Shown: piece by piece, positions 26,038 through 30,888 of the stretch
Layout of the letters: every line of letters begins with the position of its first letter
Position numbering within the stretch: position 1 is the stretch's first letter
Origin: a cyanobiont of Ornithocercus magnificus
Lineage (GTDB): Bacteria; Cyanobacteriota; Cyanobacteriia; PCC-6307; Cyanobiaceae
NCBI GenBank assembly: GCA_007996965.1
Contig: BIMP01000001.1
Location: 496,001-560,000 of the forward strand
DNA length: 64,000 bases
Reading direction: 5' to 3'
Translations under genes and position numbers: made by a program
Notes under the pieces: model-generated
Databases searched by the model: none
What the model was told of the DNA's origin: nothing
What the model saw: the letters and a program-made list of their open reading frames with translations, nothing else

Positions 26038-26898
26038 ATGACTGAGCTGCCACACTCCAATCCCCTTCCTTGGGCCTCTGTGCCAGGGGACTTGCCGCGT
26101 TCGTTCTCTGCCCGTAAGGATTTTGAGGAGTTTTTAGCCAGTCTCTTCCCGACTAGTAAGGGAACGCTAAGTCCTATCCTTGGTGGGCGGTTAGCTGCTG
26201 AGCATCAGTTAAAACAGCTAAATGCAAAGCACTACGGGCATAGCCGCAACTACCTTAATGGTGCAGTAACACGTCTCTCACCCTTCATTTCTCATGGTGT
26301 TCTGACTCTAGTGGAGGTAAGAAATGAGATATTCTGTCAACTCCGACGGCATCGGCAAGACCAAGCTGAAGGCGCAAAACTGATTAACGAGTTGGGATGG
26401 CGTGACTTTTGGCAACGGATGTGGCAGAGGCTCGGGAATGGTATCTGGGAAGAGCGTGAAGAATATAAAACTGGCTACAGCGCATCTAGTTATGATCACT
26501 GTCTACCCCAAGATATTCGCGATGGCTACACTGGCCTTGCCTGCATGGATGCCTTCCAGAAGCAGCTAGTGACCACAGGTTGGTTGCACAATCATGCTCG
26601 GATGTGGTTAGCTGCTTATATAGTCCACTGGCGACAAATACATTGGCGCACTGGAGCGCACTGGTTTCTAGAACACTTGCTTGATGGGGATCCTGCTAGC
26701 AACAACCTCAGTTGGCAGTGGGTAGCCAGTAGCTTTAGTCACAAACCCTATATTTTCAATCGGCAAAGTCTAGAAAGATTTAGCTGTGGCTGCTTCTGCA
26801 AAAAATGTGAGGTACAAAAACACTGCCCATTCGATGCAAGTTATGAGCAGCTTCAACAGCAGCTGTTTCGGCCACAAGACAAATGCGCAACTTACTAG
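26038..26898 (+). CDS. Photolyase/cryptochrome-like FAD-binding domain protein
   Basis: A 286-residue protein that matches only the C-terminal, FAD-binding helical half of photolyases/cryptochromes. Recognisable stretches are RLSPFISHGVLTLVEV (about 80-95), NELGWRDFWQRMW (about 117-129), GWLHNHARMWLAAYIVHW (about 180-197) and the FAD-contacting DGDPASNNLSWQWVASSF (about 217-234). The antenna domain is absent here and a photolyase N-domain-like protein is encoded four bases downstream. The C-terminus has a cysteine cluster (CGCFCKKCEVQKHC, about 253-266), suggestive of a metal or Fe-S site. DNA repair activity is unproven; it may be a light sensor or a split enzyme. Confidence 0.85.
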   Translation: MTELPHSNPLPWASVPGDLPRSFSARKDFEEFLASLFPTSKGTLSPILGGRLAAEHQLKQLNAKHYGHSRNYLNGAVTRLSPFISHGVLTLVEVRNEIFCQLRRHRQDQAEGAKLINELGWRDFWQRMWQRLGNGIWEEREEYKTGYSASSYDHCLPQDIRDGYTGLACMDAFQKQLVTTGWLHNHARMWLAAYIVHWRQIHWRTGAHWFLEHLLDGDPASNNLSWQWVASSFSHKPYIFNRQSLERFSCGCFCKKCEVQKHCPFDASYEQLQQQLFRPQDKCATY

Positions 26899-26902
26899 GT
26901 AA

Positions 26903-27340
26903 GTGGAAGTTTATTGCTCTCCACGCCCTATCCTTTGGGTACATAGTGAGGGTTTAGGGCCTAAGAACCCGGCACTGCAAGAACACCCTAACACTCCTGC
27001 CATATTTGTATTTGACCGTTTTTTGATTGAGCAAGGCCGGTTCAGCCGCAAACGTCTGGCCTTTCTGTATGAATGCTTACTTGAGTTGCCGGTGACAATA
27101 AGACAAGGTGATGTGGTTGCTGAGGTGCTTCGCTTCGCACGAAGACATGCTGCGGATACAATTATCACCAGCCAAGCTGTAGACCCACGCCTTAAGGCGT
27201 TTTGTAAGGCCCTCGAAGATACACTACCAGTTGTTGTTCTTGAGCCAGAGCCATTTGTATCACTGTCACCATCAATATATCTCAACCGTTTCAGCCACTA
27301 TTGGCGCTACGCTCAGTCTCTAGTTTGGCAAGATTTTTAG
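26903..27340 (+). CDS. Photolyase N-terminal-domain-like protein
   Basis: A 145-residue protein starting at GTG, four bases after the FAD-domain gene. It resembles the Rossmann-like antenna domain of photolyases: an initial strand ILWVHSEGL, a central AIFVFDRFLIEQGRFSRKRLAFLYECL (about 34-60, the photolyase 'FVFD' and helix), LPVTIRQGDVVAEVLRFARRHAADTIITSQAVDPR (about 63-97) and a final strand TLPVVVLEPEPF. It is too short to work alone as a photolyase. The tight spacing suggests that it works with, or binds to, the upstream FAD-domain protein. Confidence 0.75.
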   Translation: MEVYCSPRPILWVHSEGLGPKNPALQEHPNTPAIFVFDRFLIEQGRFSRKRLAFLYECLLELPVTIRQGDVVAEVLRFARRHAADTIITSQAVDPRLKAFCKALEDTLPVVVLEPEPFVSLSPSIYLNRFSHYWRYAQSLVWQDF

Positions 27341-27546: not shown

Positions 27547-28161
27547 ATGACTATTACGCCTTCTACGATGCTACCATTAGGGACTATTCTACCATCTTTT
27601 GCTCTAACTCAGATCAATACATTAGGATTAAAGGATACTTCTACAGTCATTCGGGATTACGACCCATCACTACAGCCACTTCTGCTAATGGAGTTATGTG
27701 CTCACTGCCCCTTCGTCAAACATGTTGAAGTTGAGCTGACGCGTCTGTATCAAGACTATGGCAAGCGAGTACGGTTTTTAGCAGTATCTAGTAATAGTCT
27801 AGAGACCCATCCTCAGGATTCTCCTAAATATTTAGCTGAGCAGGCAAAGCGTAATGGCTGGGATTTTCCTTACCTTCTTGACAGTGATCAGCAGCTAGCA
27901 CGTGCTCTTCAAGCTGCCTGCACTCCAGATTTCTTCTTATTCAGTCCTGATGACAACAATCATCAGAGACTTCGCTATAGGGGACAGCTAGACGACAGTC
28001 GACCAGGTAACTCAAGGAGCCTGACTGGTAAGGACTTGCGCTGCGCTCTTGATGCCGTTCTCGCAGGCGCTGAAATCTGCATTGACCAGAAACCCTCAAT
28101 TGGCTGTAATATCAAGTGGCATCCTGGCCGAGAACCCAACTGGTTTAACAAGAGATCTTAG
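27547..28161 (+). CDS. Thioredoxin-fold (redoxin/AhpC-TSA type) protein
   Basis: A 204-residue cytosolic protein with a redoxin fold. The N-terminal LPLGTILPSFALT is typical of peroxiredoxin-like proteins. The active-site region LLMELCAHCPFVKHVEVEL (about 48-66) holds a C-x-x-C-P pair, as in thiol-disulfide exchangers. A cis-Pro-like CTPDFFLF segment follows at about 127-134. There is no signal peptide. Relatives are annotated simply as thioredoxin family proteins and the substrate is unknown. Its last part lies just ahead of the DegT gene (10 bases apart), so cotranscription is likely. Confidence 0.85.
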   Translation: MTITPSTMLPLGTILPSFALTQINTLGLKDTSTVIRDYDPSLQPLLLMELCAHCPFVKHVEVELTRLYQDYGKRVRFLAVSSNSLETHPQDSPKYLAEQAKRNGWDFPYLLDSDQQLARALQAACTPDFFLFSPDDNNHQRLRYRGQLDDSRPGNSRSLTGKDLRCALDAVLAGAEICIDQKPSIGCNIKWHPGREPNWFNKRS

Positions 28162-28171
28162 GGTATCAACT

Positions 28172-29398
28172 ATGCAGGTACCCCTATTCAGCCTCACGCA
28201 GCAAATCACTGGACTTGGCGATGAACTTGACGCGGCAGTGCTTCAGGTGCTTCATAGTGGTCAGTACATTGGTGGTTCTGAGACTCGTCGCTTTGAGGAA
28301 GCTTTTGCTGCACTTATCGGAATACCTCATGTTGTAAGTTGTAACAGTGGTACCGATGCACTTGTGTTGGCCTTACGTGGCCTTGGAGTTGGAACTGGAG
28401 ATGAGGTTATCACTTGCTCCTTTAACTTCTTCGCCACCGCTGAGGCAATCAGCGCAGTTGGTGCAACTCCCGTGTTTGTTGATGTTGATCCCACCACCAA
28501 ACTCATTAATCCTAACCAGATCGAGGCGGCAATCACTCCAGCTACCCGAGTTCTGTTGCCAGTGCATCTCTTCGGGCGTCCTGTAGCTATGGACCAATTG
28601 ATGGCTATTGCTCAGCGTCACAGTTTGTGGGTGATCGAAGATTGTGCCCAGGCAGCTGGTGCCAGCTGGGATAATCGACCTGTGGGCAGCTGGGGAGACG
28701 CAGGTTGTTTCAGCTTTTTTCCCACCAAAAACCTCGGTGGAGCTGGCGATGGTGGAGCTATTACTTGCCATGATGCCAGCCTGGCACAGCGCATGCGCGA
28801 GCTGGCTGTTCATGGTATGCCCCGCCGCTATCTACATACAGCTCTAGGTATTAACAGCCGCCTTGATGCACTTCAAGCTGCTGTTCTCAATGTAAAGTTG
28901 CCCCATCTGAACACTTGGCTAGATCAGCGCCGCCACATCGCCCAGCGTTACTTCAACGGACTGGCAGATATTCCAGGATTAACACTGCCAGATCCTGCTA
29001 ATGATGGCCGAACAGGCCATAGCTGGAATCAGTTTGTTCTCCGCATCGCGAATTGCTCAGCAGTCAAACCTGCCGAAAATAATATATGCACCCCCTCTAC
29101 GGACACTATGCATAGTCTTTCTGAGGGCTGCTGCCGTGATCAGCTCAAGCAAAGTCTCTTAGATCAGGGAATTCAGACGACAATTTATTACCCAATTCCG
29201 ATTCATCGGCAGCCAGCCTACAGCCATCTTCACCTCGGCCCTGGAAGTCTTCCCATCACGGAACAGCTCTGCAGTGAGGTTATCAGCCTTCCCATTTACC
29301 CAGAGTTGCCTACAGATTACCAAGACTGGGTCATGGTGGCACTACGCCAGTATCTTTCGAGATGCTGGCCAGACAGTCAAGCACGGATAGCAGCATAG
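28172..29398 (+). CDS. DegT/DnrJ/EryC1/StrS family aminotransferase
   Basis: A PLP-dependent sugar aminotransferase of 408 residues from the ATG at 28172; the frame extends upstream within the preceding gene, but the family starts at MQVPLFSL. The PLP lysine is in FFPTKNLGGAGDGGAI (about 185-200). SCNSGTDALVLALRGLGVGTGDEV (about 53-76) and EDCAQAAGA are typical. Members convert keto sugars (for example UDP-4- or 3-keto-hexoses) to amino sugars for surface glycans. A 30-residue polar insertion after ANCSAVKPAENN is unusual. No sugar oxidoreductase is adjacent, so the substrate is open. It overlaps the photolyase 3' end by 22 bases. Confidence 0.9.
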   Translation: MQVPLFSLTQQITGLGDELDAAVLQVLHSGQYIGGSETRRFEEAFAALIGIPHVVSCNSGTDALVLALRGLGVGTGDEVITCSFNFFATAEAISAVGATPVFVDVDPTTKLINPNQIEAAITPATRVLLPVHLFGRPVAMDQLMAIAQRHSLWVIEDCAQAAGASWDNRPVGSWGDAGCFSFFPTKNLGGAGDGGAITCHDASLAQRMRELAVHGMPRRYLHTALGINSRLDALQAAVLNVKLPHLNTWLDQRRHIAQRYFNGLADIPGLTLPDPANDGRTGHSWNQFVLRIANCSAVKPAENNICTPSTDTMHSLSEGCCRDQLKQSLLDQGIQTTIYYPIPIHRQPAYSHLHLGPGSLPITEQLCSEVISLPIYPELPTDYQDWVMVALRQYLSRCWPDSQARIAA

Positions 29399-30888
29399 AG
29401 TTTTTTGAAACGCATCTGCTGGCATTTATGCTCCACTAGTGGCTCTGGGTAGCCACGACGCTCTGCTGCAGTGATGACGCCACTAAGTAGATCTGGCGTG
29501 GCAACATGGGCAATCTCTGGCAGCCAGCGACGGATATATGAAGCATCAGGATCAAACTTGGCCGCCTGAATCGCTGGATTGAAGATTCGCAATGGTTTGG
29601 GGTCCATACCACTGCTAGCACTCCACTGCCATCCTCCATTGTTGGCAGCTAAGTCACCATCAACCAAAAGATTTATAAAAGCCCTTTCACCCCAGCGCCA
29701 GTCACATATCAAATCCTTAACTAAAAAAGAGGCCACAATCATGCGACAGCGGTTATGCATCCATCCGCTCTCCTGTAGCTGTCGCATCGCGGCATCAACA
29801 ATAGGTACACCAGTCAATCCATCACACCAGGCATGGAAGCGAATGATGTGATTGTCCCAGCGAAAAGCCTTCCATTGAACACGATAAGGGCCGTTAGCTA
29901 ACTCTGGGAAGTGGAAAAGAGCCTGCTGATAGAACTCGCGCCAGGCTAGTTCTTGCTCCCAAGTACAAACTGCTTTGGCCTGTTCAGGTTTATAGATGAG
30001 CTTGTATGCTTGGCGAGCAGCTGCCCAGACTTGGCGTGGGCTAATAGTGCCAAATCTAAGAGCTGCACTAAGACATGATGTACCCATATCTCCAGGAAAA
30101 TTGCGTTTGAGCTCGTACCTAAGTAGCGGACCATCTTCACAAAACATTCTTAACTGTTGGTAGGCAGCTTTCTCACCAGGGCGACAAGGACAGGAGCTGA
30201 CCCCACCAAAGCCATGTCTTTTTAGAAGGCTCTCTAGGCAAGCTTGTCCATGCAATAGTGCAGCAGTAATAGACTTACAGTGATTTAAGCCTTGCTCAAT
30301 TTCAGGTGGCAGATCAAGAAGATCGTGTGACGCCAGCGAATCTTCCACATAATCTTTAGAGATTACCTGATCTTTGCACTCCATCTGACGACGCCAGCTG
30401 CGCCAGAATGCACCATAGATACGATAAGGGCGGCCAGATTTAGTGTATAATTGTCCTGGCGGAATAAGCAGTTGGTCCCAACCAACCAAGACGCGGAAGC
30501 CACTAGACTGCAGTGCAGCAGCTGTTCGGCGATCGCGTTCTCGACTCATTGGTTCAACATCGCGATTCCAGACCACTGCTTCTGCCTGTAACAACCTTGC
30601 AAGATGAGGAAATAGCGTAGCTGGATCACCACTCATTACCAGCAGACGACTACCAGCTTTGCGCCAGTGACTTTCTAACTCCTGTAGGCTCTCAGCTAAA
30701 AACCAGCGCCGGGCTGGAGCATCCAGAAGATAGTCTTCATCTCTCCCAATAGAGTCTGGTGCAGCAGCTTGATCAAGTAGAAATACGCCAGTAACAGCAG
30801 GTGTAACTTTCATTGCAGCTGCTAGGCCAAGGTTGTCACTTAAGCGCAGATCACGGCGATGCCAAAATAGATAGCGTGGTGGTGCCAT
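29377..30888 (-). CDS. phrB: Deoxyribodipyrimidine photolyase (class I CPD type)
   Basis: A full-length photolyase of 503 residues that repairs UV-induced cyclobutane pyrimidine dimers with blue light. The N-terminal antenna domain (about 1-140) begins LFWHRRDLRLSDN; the FAD domain (about 210-490) contains WEQELAWREFYQQ, GVPIVDAAMRQLQESGWMHNRCRMIVASFL and LVDGDLAANNGGWQWSASSG. The conserved Trp positions expected for electron transfer and the MRQL-GWMHNR lesion-binding region are present. The antenna is probably 8-HDF as in cyanobacteria. The start codon overlaps the NUDIX stop by one base, so it ends a folK-NUDIX-phrB operon. Confidence 0.94.
   Translation of the reverse strand: MAPPRYLFWHRRDLRLSDNLGLAAAMKVTPAVTGVFLLDQAAAPDSIGRDEDYLLDAPARRWFLAESLQELESHWRKAGSRLLVMSGDPATLFPHLARLLQAEAVVWNRDVEPMSRERDRRTAAALQSSGFRVLVGWDQLLIPPGQLYTKSGRPYRIYGAFWRSWRRQMECKDQVISKDYVEDSLASHDLLDLPPEIEQGLNHCKSITAALLHGQACLESLLKRHGFGGVSSCPCRPGEKAAYQQLRMFCEDGPLLRYELKRNFPGDMGTSCLSAALRFGTISPRQVWAAARQAYKLIYKPEQAKAVCTWEQELAWREFYQQALFHFPELANGPYRVQWKAFRWDNHIIRFHAWCDGLTGVPIVDAAMRQLQESGWMHNRCRMIVASFLVKDLICDWRWGERAFINLLVDGDLAANNGGWQWSASSGMDPKPLRIFNPAIQAAKFDPDASYIRRWLPEIAHVATPDLLSGVITAAERRGYPEPLVEHKCQQMRFKKLYAAIRA

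What the first reader, a model, noticed from the sequence alone, without database searches (positions are those of the whole stretch)
26038..27340. Photolyase-like protein split into two genes in reversed domain order
The upstream gene encodes only the FAD-binding half of a photolyase/cryptochrome, and the next gene, 4 bases later, encodes a protein resembling the N-terminal antenna half. The halves therefore appear in opposite order to a normal photolyase and could reassemble as a two-chain enzyme or sensor. A normal full-length photolyase is also present 2 kb away (29377-30888), so this pair is not needed for basic CPD repair. The FAD half ends in a compact cysteine cluster (C-x-C-x2-C-x5-C) that could bind a metal or Fe-S centre.
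Basis: partly seen in the sequence, partly recalled or inferred. Interest (0 to 1): 0.6.

Follow-up and report, generated by a model that had tools for sequence, protein, structure and literature searches.

The report
Two-gene photolyase (Phr4/Phr5) pair
Two neighbouring genes encode the catalytic half and the light-antenna-like half of a DNA-repair photolyase as separate proteins in unusual order; this is the already published cyanobacterial Phr4/Phr5 system, and the genome comparisons made here indicate that the two chains are made separately and needed together.

Summary
Window 26038-26898 encodes a FAD-domain-only photolyase half, and 26903-27340 a photolyase N-domain-like protein whose model matches photolyase N-domains best among solved structures (Z 12). 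This is the phr4/phr5 pair of marine Synechococcus published by Haney et al. 2022 (PMC9426592): same order, same Fe-S cysteines, phr3 nearby. So it is a further member of a known kind. That paper left open whether the ORFs are frameshifted into one protein, and suggested (6-4) repair. Best reading: an obligate two-chain, Fe-S-bearing, FAD-first photolyase, more likely CPD- than (6-4)-specific.

The parts
26038..26898 (+). phr4: FAD-binding (catalytic) half, 286 aa, no N-terminal domain
   Evidence: Pfam FAD_binding_7 87.7 bits; 56-66% identity to Phr4 of family members; fold match Z 17-18.6 to photolyases for the orthologous half of a fused relative
26903..27340 (+). phr5: N-domain (antenna-type alpha/beta domain) as a separate 145-aa protein, GTG start
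   Evidence: model pLDDT 89.6; Foldseek/VIA-align to photolyase N-domains; hhalign to class I N-domains probability 93%, E 3e-7
26896..26905 (+). junction TAG-G-TAA-GTG: frame-0 stop, then a stop in the phr5 frame, then the phr5 GTG start
   Evidence: sequence; junction scripts
26542..26544 (+). Cys169 codon, first conserved Fe-S ligand
   Evidence: C in 144 of 145 Phr4/Phr6 sequences; same number as in RS9916 Phr4
26797..26826 (+). Cys254, Cys257, Cys263 codons (26797-26799, 26806-26808, 26824-26826), remaining Fe-S ligands
   Evidence: 143 of 145 each
26590..26604 (+). Asn185 and Met189 codons, lesion-pocket residues of CPD type
   Evidence: align with N349 and M353 of A. nidulans photolyase; N in 145/145, M in 134/145 and L in 11
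29377..30888 (-). phr3: ordinary class I 8-HDF-type CPD photolyase, context gene
   Evidence: TIGR03556 601 bits (below that model's own cut-off of 884.6, which is an exception-level model); the only other FAD_binding_7 protein in this genome assembly

Best explanation
The pair is a two-subunit photolyase (Phr4/Phr5). Phr4 binds FAD and a [4Fe-4S] cluster and holds the lesion pocket; Phr5 is the photolyase N-domain supplied as a separate chain that docks on Phr4, seals or feeds its flavin, and may carry an antenna pigment. The two are translated separately, probably from one mRNA by coupled re-initiation, not by frameshift. Shown by computation: domain identities, Fe-S ligand conservation, impossibility of frameshift fusion here, co-occurrence even when unlinked, natural fusions. 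Inferred: physical complex, cluster occupancy, antenna pigment, lesion. The lesion pocket points to CPD repair (about 0.6) rather than (6-4) repair (about 0.2) or a non-repair role (about 0.2).
For: Domains and fold. Co-occurrence in 386 cyanobacterial genomes: 81 both, 302 neither; Phr5-only = one match at a contig edge (G046) and one frameshifted relic (G535); Phr4-profile-only = one FAD-first NewPHL/Phr7-like protein (G226/L163). 22 of the 81 are unlinked (12 on one contig 25 kb to 4.9 Mb apart, 10 on different contigs), at least 9 linked/unlinked changes on a quick tree. Phr4 and Phr5 identity matrices agree in 21 unlinked genomes, r 0.96, Mantel 0/2000. Fusions in FAD-then-N order in Cyanobiaceae (13 of 114 distinct loci, at least 3 changes) and on three Deinococcus plasmids, split with a 4-base overlap on a fourth. 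Model of a fused relative: pLDDT 91.7, pTM 0.90 with a low-confidence linker between the halves, implying a defined docking. Junctions: frames 0/+1/+2 in 25/19/53 split loci, ATG start in 90 of 97; in 39 of 97, this window included, a frameshift cannot reach the Phr5 frame. CPD-type residues E283, W286, N349, M353, W392 of A. nidulans photolyase map to E118, W121, N185, M189, W228, each conserved in 134-145 of 145; PhrB H366N and H366N/L370M have no (6-4) repair (PMC4619345).
Against: No biochemical data on a complex. Haney et al. found that RS9916 phr4/phr5 raised E. coli survival after UV-C but not light-dependently, and that its loss hurt after UV-C and not UV-B, which they took to favour (6-4) repair. 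Co-occurrence counts are not phylogenetically independent; in Cyanobiaceae one deletion can remove both genes.
Confidence: 0.75

Rival explanations
1. A programmed ribosomal frameshift joins Phr4 and Phr5 into one reversed-order protein (the possibility raised by Haney et al. 2022).
For: Natural one-gene fusions in the same order exist; in 58 of 97 split loci the Phr5 frame overlaps the end of Phr4.
Against: Impossible in this window because the Phr5 frame has TAA at 26900-26902, after the Phr4 stop. Phr5 lies in any of three frames relative to Phr4, 25 loci being in frame with a stop between; 22 genomes have the genes unlinked.
Confidence: 0.05
2. Phr4/Phr5 is a (6-4) photolyase of the PhrB (FeS-BCP) type.
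For: Four conserved Cys at similar spacing; the Phr4 profile reaches PhrB over the Fe-S region (E 1.7e-4); UV-C-weighted phenotype in RS9916.
Against: Asn, not His, at the position essential for (6-4) repair in PhrB; the sequence profile matches class I CPD photolyases far better (E 6e-25 against 2e-4); no DPRP (PF04244) match in Phr5.
Confidence: 0.2
3. Phr4 works alone like antenna-free short photolyases, and Phr5 is a decaying or unrelated leftover.
For: A FAD half alone holds all FAD and lesion residues.
Against: Phr5 is well conserved (45 invariant columns over 16 sequences), always kept with intact Phr4 and separately maintained when unlinked.
Confidence: 0.07
4. The pair is a light sensor (cryptochrome-like) rather than a repair enzyme.
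For: The superfamily includes sensors; protection in E. coli was not light-dependent.
Against: The CPD lesion-pocket residues are kept, and knock-out lowers UV-C survival in RS9916.
Confidence: 0.12

Closest known systems
Phr4/Phr5 and fused Phr6 of marine Synechococcus and Cyanobium (Haney et al. 2022, PMC9426592)
   Same: Gene order, adjacency, domain content, Fe-S cysteines (C169, C254, C257, C263 with the same numbers), phr3 close by
   Different: Junction: here TAG-G-TAA-GTG with 4 bases between stop and start and no frameshift route, whereas they report a constant seven-base separation; this assembly has only phr3 as a second FAD_binding_7 photolyase and no PF04244 protein
NewPHL / Phr7 photolyases (FAD domain first, C-terminal Z-domain; described in PMC9426592 citing Emmerich et al. 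2020, which was not held)
   Same: FAD-first order; nearest FAD-domain relatives here, all separated from class I with 100/100 support
   Different: Phr4 has the four Cys and NewPHL/Phr7 do not; Phr5 resembles a class I N-domain more (93%) than NewPHL Z (73%) or Phr7 Z (no signal); one chain against two
Fe-S (6-4) photolyase PhrB (FeS-BCP)
   Same: Four Fe-S cysteines, overall fold (VIA Z 17.4 for the FAD half, 11.8-12.1 for the N half)
   Different: Order of domains, Asn185 in place of His366, N-domain closer to PF00875 than PF04244
Class I CPD photolyase (A. nidulans PHR, window phr3)
   Same: CPD-type lesion pocket and FAD-binding residues
   Different: One chain, N-domain first, no Fe-S cysteines

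Membership tests
Phr4/Phr5 (Haney et al. 2022) | FAD-domain ORF followed directly by a separate photolyase-domain ORF | tested here: met
Phr4/Phr5 (Haney et al. 2022) | Fe-S cysteines at C169, C254, C257, C263 | tested here: met
   numbers
Phr4/Phr5 (Haney et al. 2022) | Groups with picocyanobacterial Phr4/Phr5 in a tree | tested here: met
   sister to the marine Synechococcus sequences, SH-aLRT 99
Phr4/Phr5 (Haney et al. 2022) | Constant seven-base separation of the ORFs, reported for all their strains (a reported trait, not treated here as defining) | tested here: not met
   4 bases here; widely variable in 97 split loci, a 7-base gap in only two
FeS-BCP (6-4) photolyase (PhrB) | Four Fe-S cysteines | tested here: met
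FeS-BCP (6-4) photolyase (PhrB) | His at the PhrB 366 position | tested here: not met
   Asn in 145/145; equivalence taken from alignment to A. nidulans N349 and the H366N design in PMC4619345
FeS-BCP (6-4) photolyase (PhrB) | DPRP (PF04244) N-terminal domain | tested here: not met
   Phr5 gives no PF04244 match at E <= 1; no PF04244 in the genome assembly
NewPHL/Phr7 | FAD domain before the alpha/beta domain | tested here: met
NewPHL/Phr7 | Z-domain on the same chain, no Fe-S cysteines | tested here: not met
   separate chain; cysteines present
Class I CPD photolyase | N-domain and FAD domain on one chain, N-domain first | tested here: not met
Class I CPD photolyase | Lesion-pocket residues E283, W286, N349, M353, W392 | tested here: met
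Any photolyase | Light-dependent repair of pyrimidine dimers | not testable with these tools
   needs biochemistry

The most novel reading that the evidence does not exclude
Probability: 0.5. Interest if true: 0.6.

Novelty: new member of a known kind. Interest (0 to 1): 0.4.

Why it matters
The system is known but its working form is not. Gene order, junctions, unlinked copies and fusions together make the two-chain model directly testable, and the Asn/Met pocket puts the published (6-4) prediction in doubt. If CPD repair is confirmed, the Fe-S cluster cannot serve as a marker of (6-4) activity, which bears on what that cluster does in photolyases and primases.

Tried and rejected
Programmed frameshift as the general mode. 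Phr5 as simply the NewPHL Z-domain set free: first suspected from similar C-terminal motifs, but profile comparison favours class I N-domains. Phr7 Z-domain homology: no signal. Phr5 itself was not searched in phages; a NewPHL-type query gave no phage match. The NewPHL paper (Emmerich et al. 2020) is not in the library. Word searches for split, heterodimeric or two-component photolyases found nothing relevant in the ten rows listed. The placing of the Phr5 domain relative to classical photolyases could not be compared because model coordinates are not exposed. A first regular-expression count of the Fe-S cysteines failed on Nostocales sequences and was replaced by an alignment count.

Full report
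WHAT IS THERE. The two ORFs are at the stated places. Phr4 (26038-26898) matches only the FAD-binding domain of photolyases; Phr5 (26903-27340) matches the photolyase N-domain weakly by sequence (16.5 bits, below the Pfam cut-off) but clearly by predicted structure: pLDDT 89.6, photolyases and cryptochromes fill the top 45 Foldseek rows, VIA-align Z 12.1 to PhrB and CryB. Universal stress proteins score up to Z 10.2 with the same common alpha/beta fold, so the assignment rests on the fold, the profile match to class I N-domains (probability 93%, E 3e-7) and the fused relatives taken together.

ALREADY PUBLISHED. Haney et al. 2022 (PMC9426592) describe this pair as phr4/phr5 in all marine Synechococcus studied, with reversed domain order, Fe-S cysteines C169/C254/C257/C263, fused phr6 in two Cyanobium strains and phr3 several genes away. 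The window matches on each of these points, and its pair is sister to the marine Synechococcus sequences. They left open one chain or two, and predicted (6-4) repair.

ONE CHAIN OR TWO. In the window the Phr4 stop (TAG 26896-26898) is followed by TAA in the Phr5 frame (26900-26902) and then GTG (26903); a ribosome that shifted into the Phr5 frame before the Phr4 stop would end at that TAA, so no single frameshift there yields a fusion. In 97 distinct split loci Phr5 lies in frame +2 (53), 0 (25) or +1 (19), starts with ATG in 90, and the spacing varies widely, with peaks at overlaps of 1 and 4 bases. In 386 cyanobacterial genomes the two profiles co-occur in 81, with three exceptions: a contig edge, a frameshifted relic and a NewPHL-type protein. 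In 22 of the 81 the genes are unlinked, scattered over the tree with at least 9 changes (quick tree, modest support). Their divergence is congruent (r 0.96), which shows shared vertical history and does not by itself show contact. Fourteen named genomes in which the Phr5 locus lacked Phr4 or held it at a distance all contain a full Phr4; in several of these it lies only a few kb beyond the fetched flank.

FUSIONS. Single-chain forms occur in Cyanobiaceae (13 of 114 distinct loci; at least 3 changes) and on plasmids of D. psychrotolerans, D. wulumuqiensis and Deinococcus sp. AJ005, while Deinococcus sp. QL22 is split with a 4-base overlap. The model of the fused relative L071 has pTM 0.90 across both halves despite a linker of pLDDT about 58, so the halves are predicted to pack in one defined way.

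METAL SITE AND LESION. C169 is conserved in 144 of 145 and C254, C257, C263 in 143 of 145 Phr4/Phr6 sequences; C252 is not conserved. The exceptions are G408, which lost the three C-terminal ones, and G419, which is truncated. By the alignment, E118, W121, N185, M189 and W228 correspond to E283, W286, N349, M353 and W392 of the A. nidulans CPD photolyase; that these are its lesion-pocket residues is general knowledge, not a result here. N185 is invariant and M189 is Met in 134 and Leu in 11. In PhrB, H366N or H366N/L370M abolish (6-4) repair (PMC4619345). That position 366 is equivalent to N185 is taken from the mutation design and from general knowledge, not from a structure superposition made here.

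RELATIONS. In a FAD-domain tree Phr4/6, Deinococcus, NewPHL and Phr7 separate from class I with 100/100 support; order inside that group is mostly unresolved and has long branches.

HOW IT MOST LIKELY WORKS. Phr4 and Phr5 are made from adjacent ORFs, Phr5 by re-initiation at GTG 26903 (inferred). They bind each other (inferred from the fused relatives, the pTM of the fused model and obligate pairing). Light excites FADH- on Phr4, directly or through a pigment on Phr5 (inferred), and an electron splits the dimer held in the Asn185/Met189/Trp pocket (inferred from conservation). The cluster probably stabilises the C-terminal part of Phr4, as argued for PhrB in PMC4619345.

LIMITS. Groups in the genome search are unnamed, so independent losses could not be counted on a species tree. 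No experiment supports the complex, the cluster or the lesion class.

Noticed in passing
whole genome (G000): Only two FAD_binding_7 proteins (phr3 and phr4) and no PF04244 protein were found in the assembly (95.6% complete), so it appears to lack phr1 and phr2, unlike the marine Synechococcus of Haney et al..
   Followed up: partly
L247 (G535): Frameshifted Phr5 relic in a genome without Phr4, as expected if Phr5 has no use without Phr4.
   Followed up: partly
L241 (G408): Phr4 that has lost the three C-terminal Fe-S cysteines, next to a strongly diverged Phr5: a natural cluster-less variant.
   Followed up: partly
L132 genome (G453): A second, shorter Phr5 copy (query positions 2-117) elsewhere in the genome.
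   Followed up: no
window 27547-28161: AhpC/TSA-type redoxin gene directly downstream of phr5; whether it is co-transcribed is unknown.
   Followed up: no
L061: Contig titled Blastopirellula carries a Synechococcus-type pair, most likely a mis-binned cyanobacterial contig.
   Followed up: no
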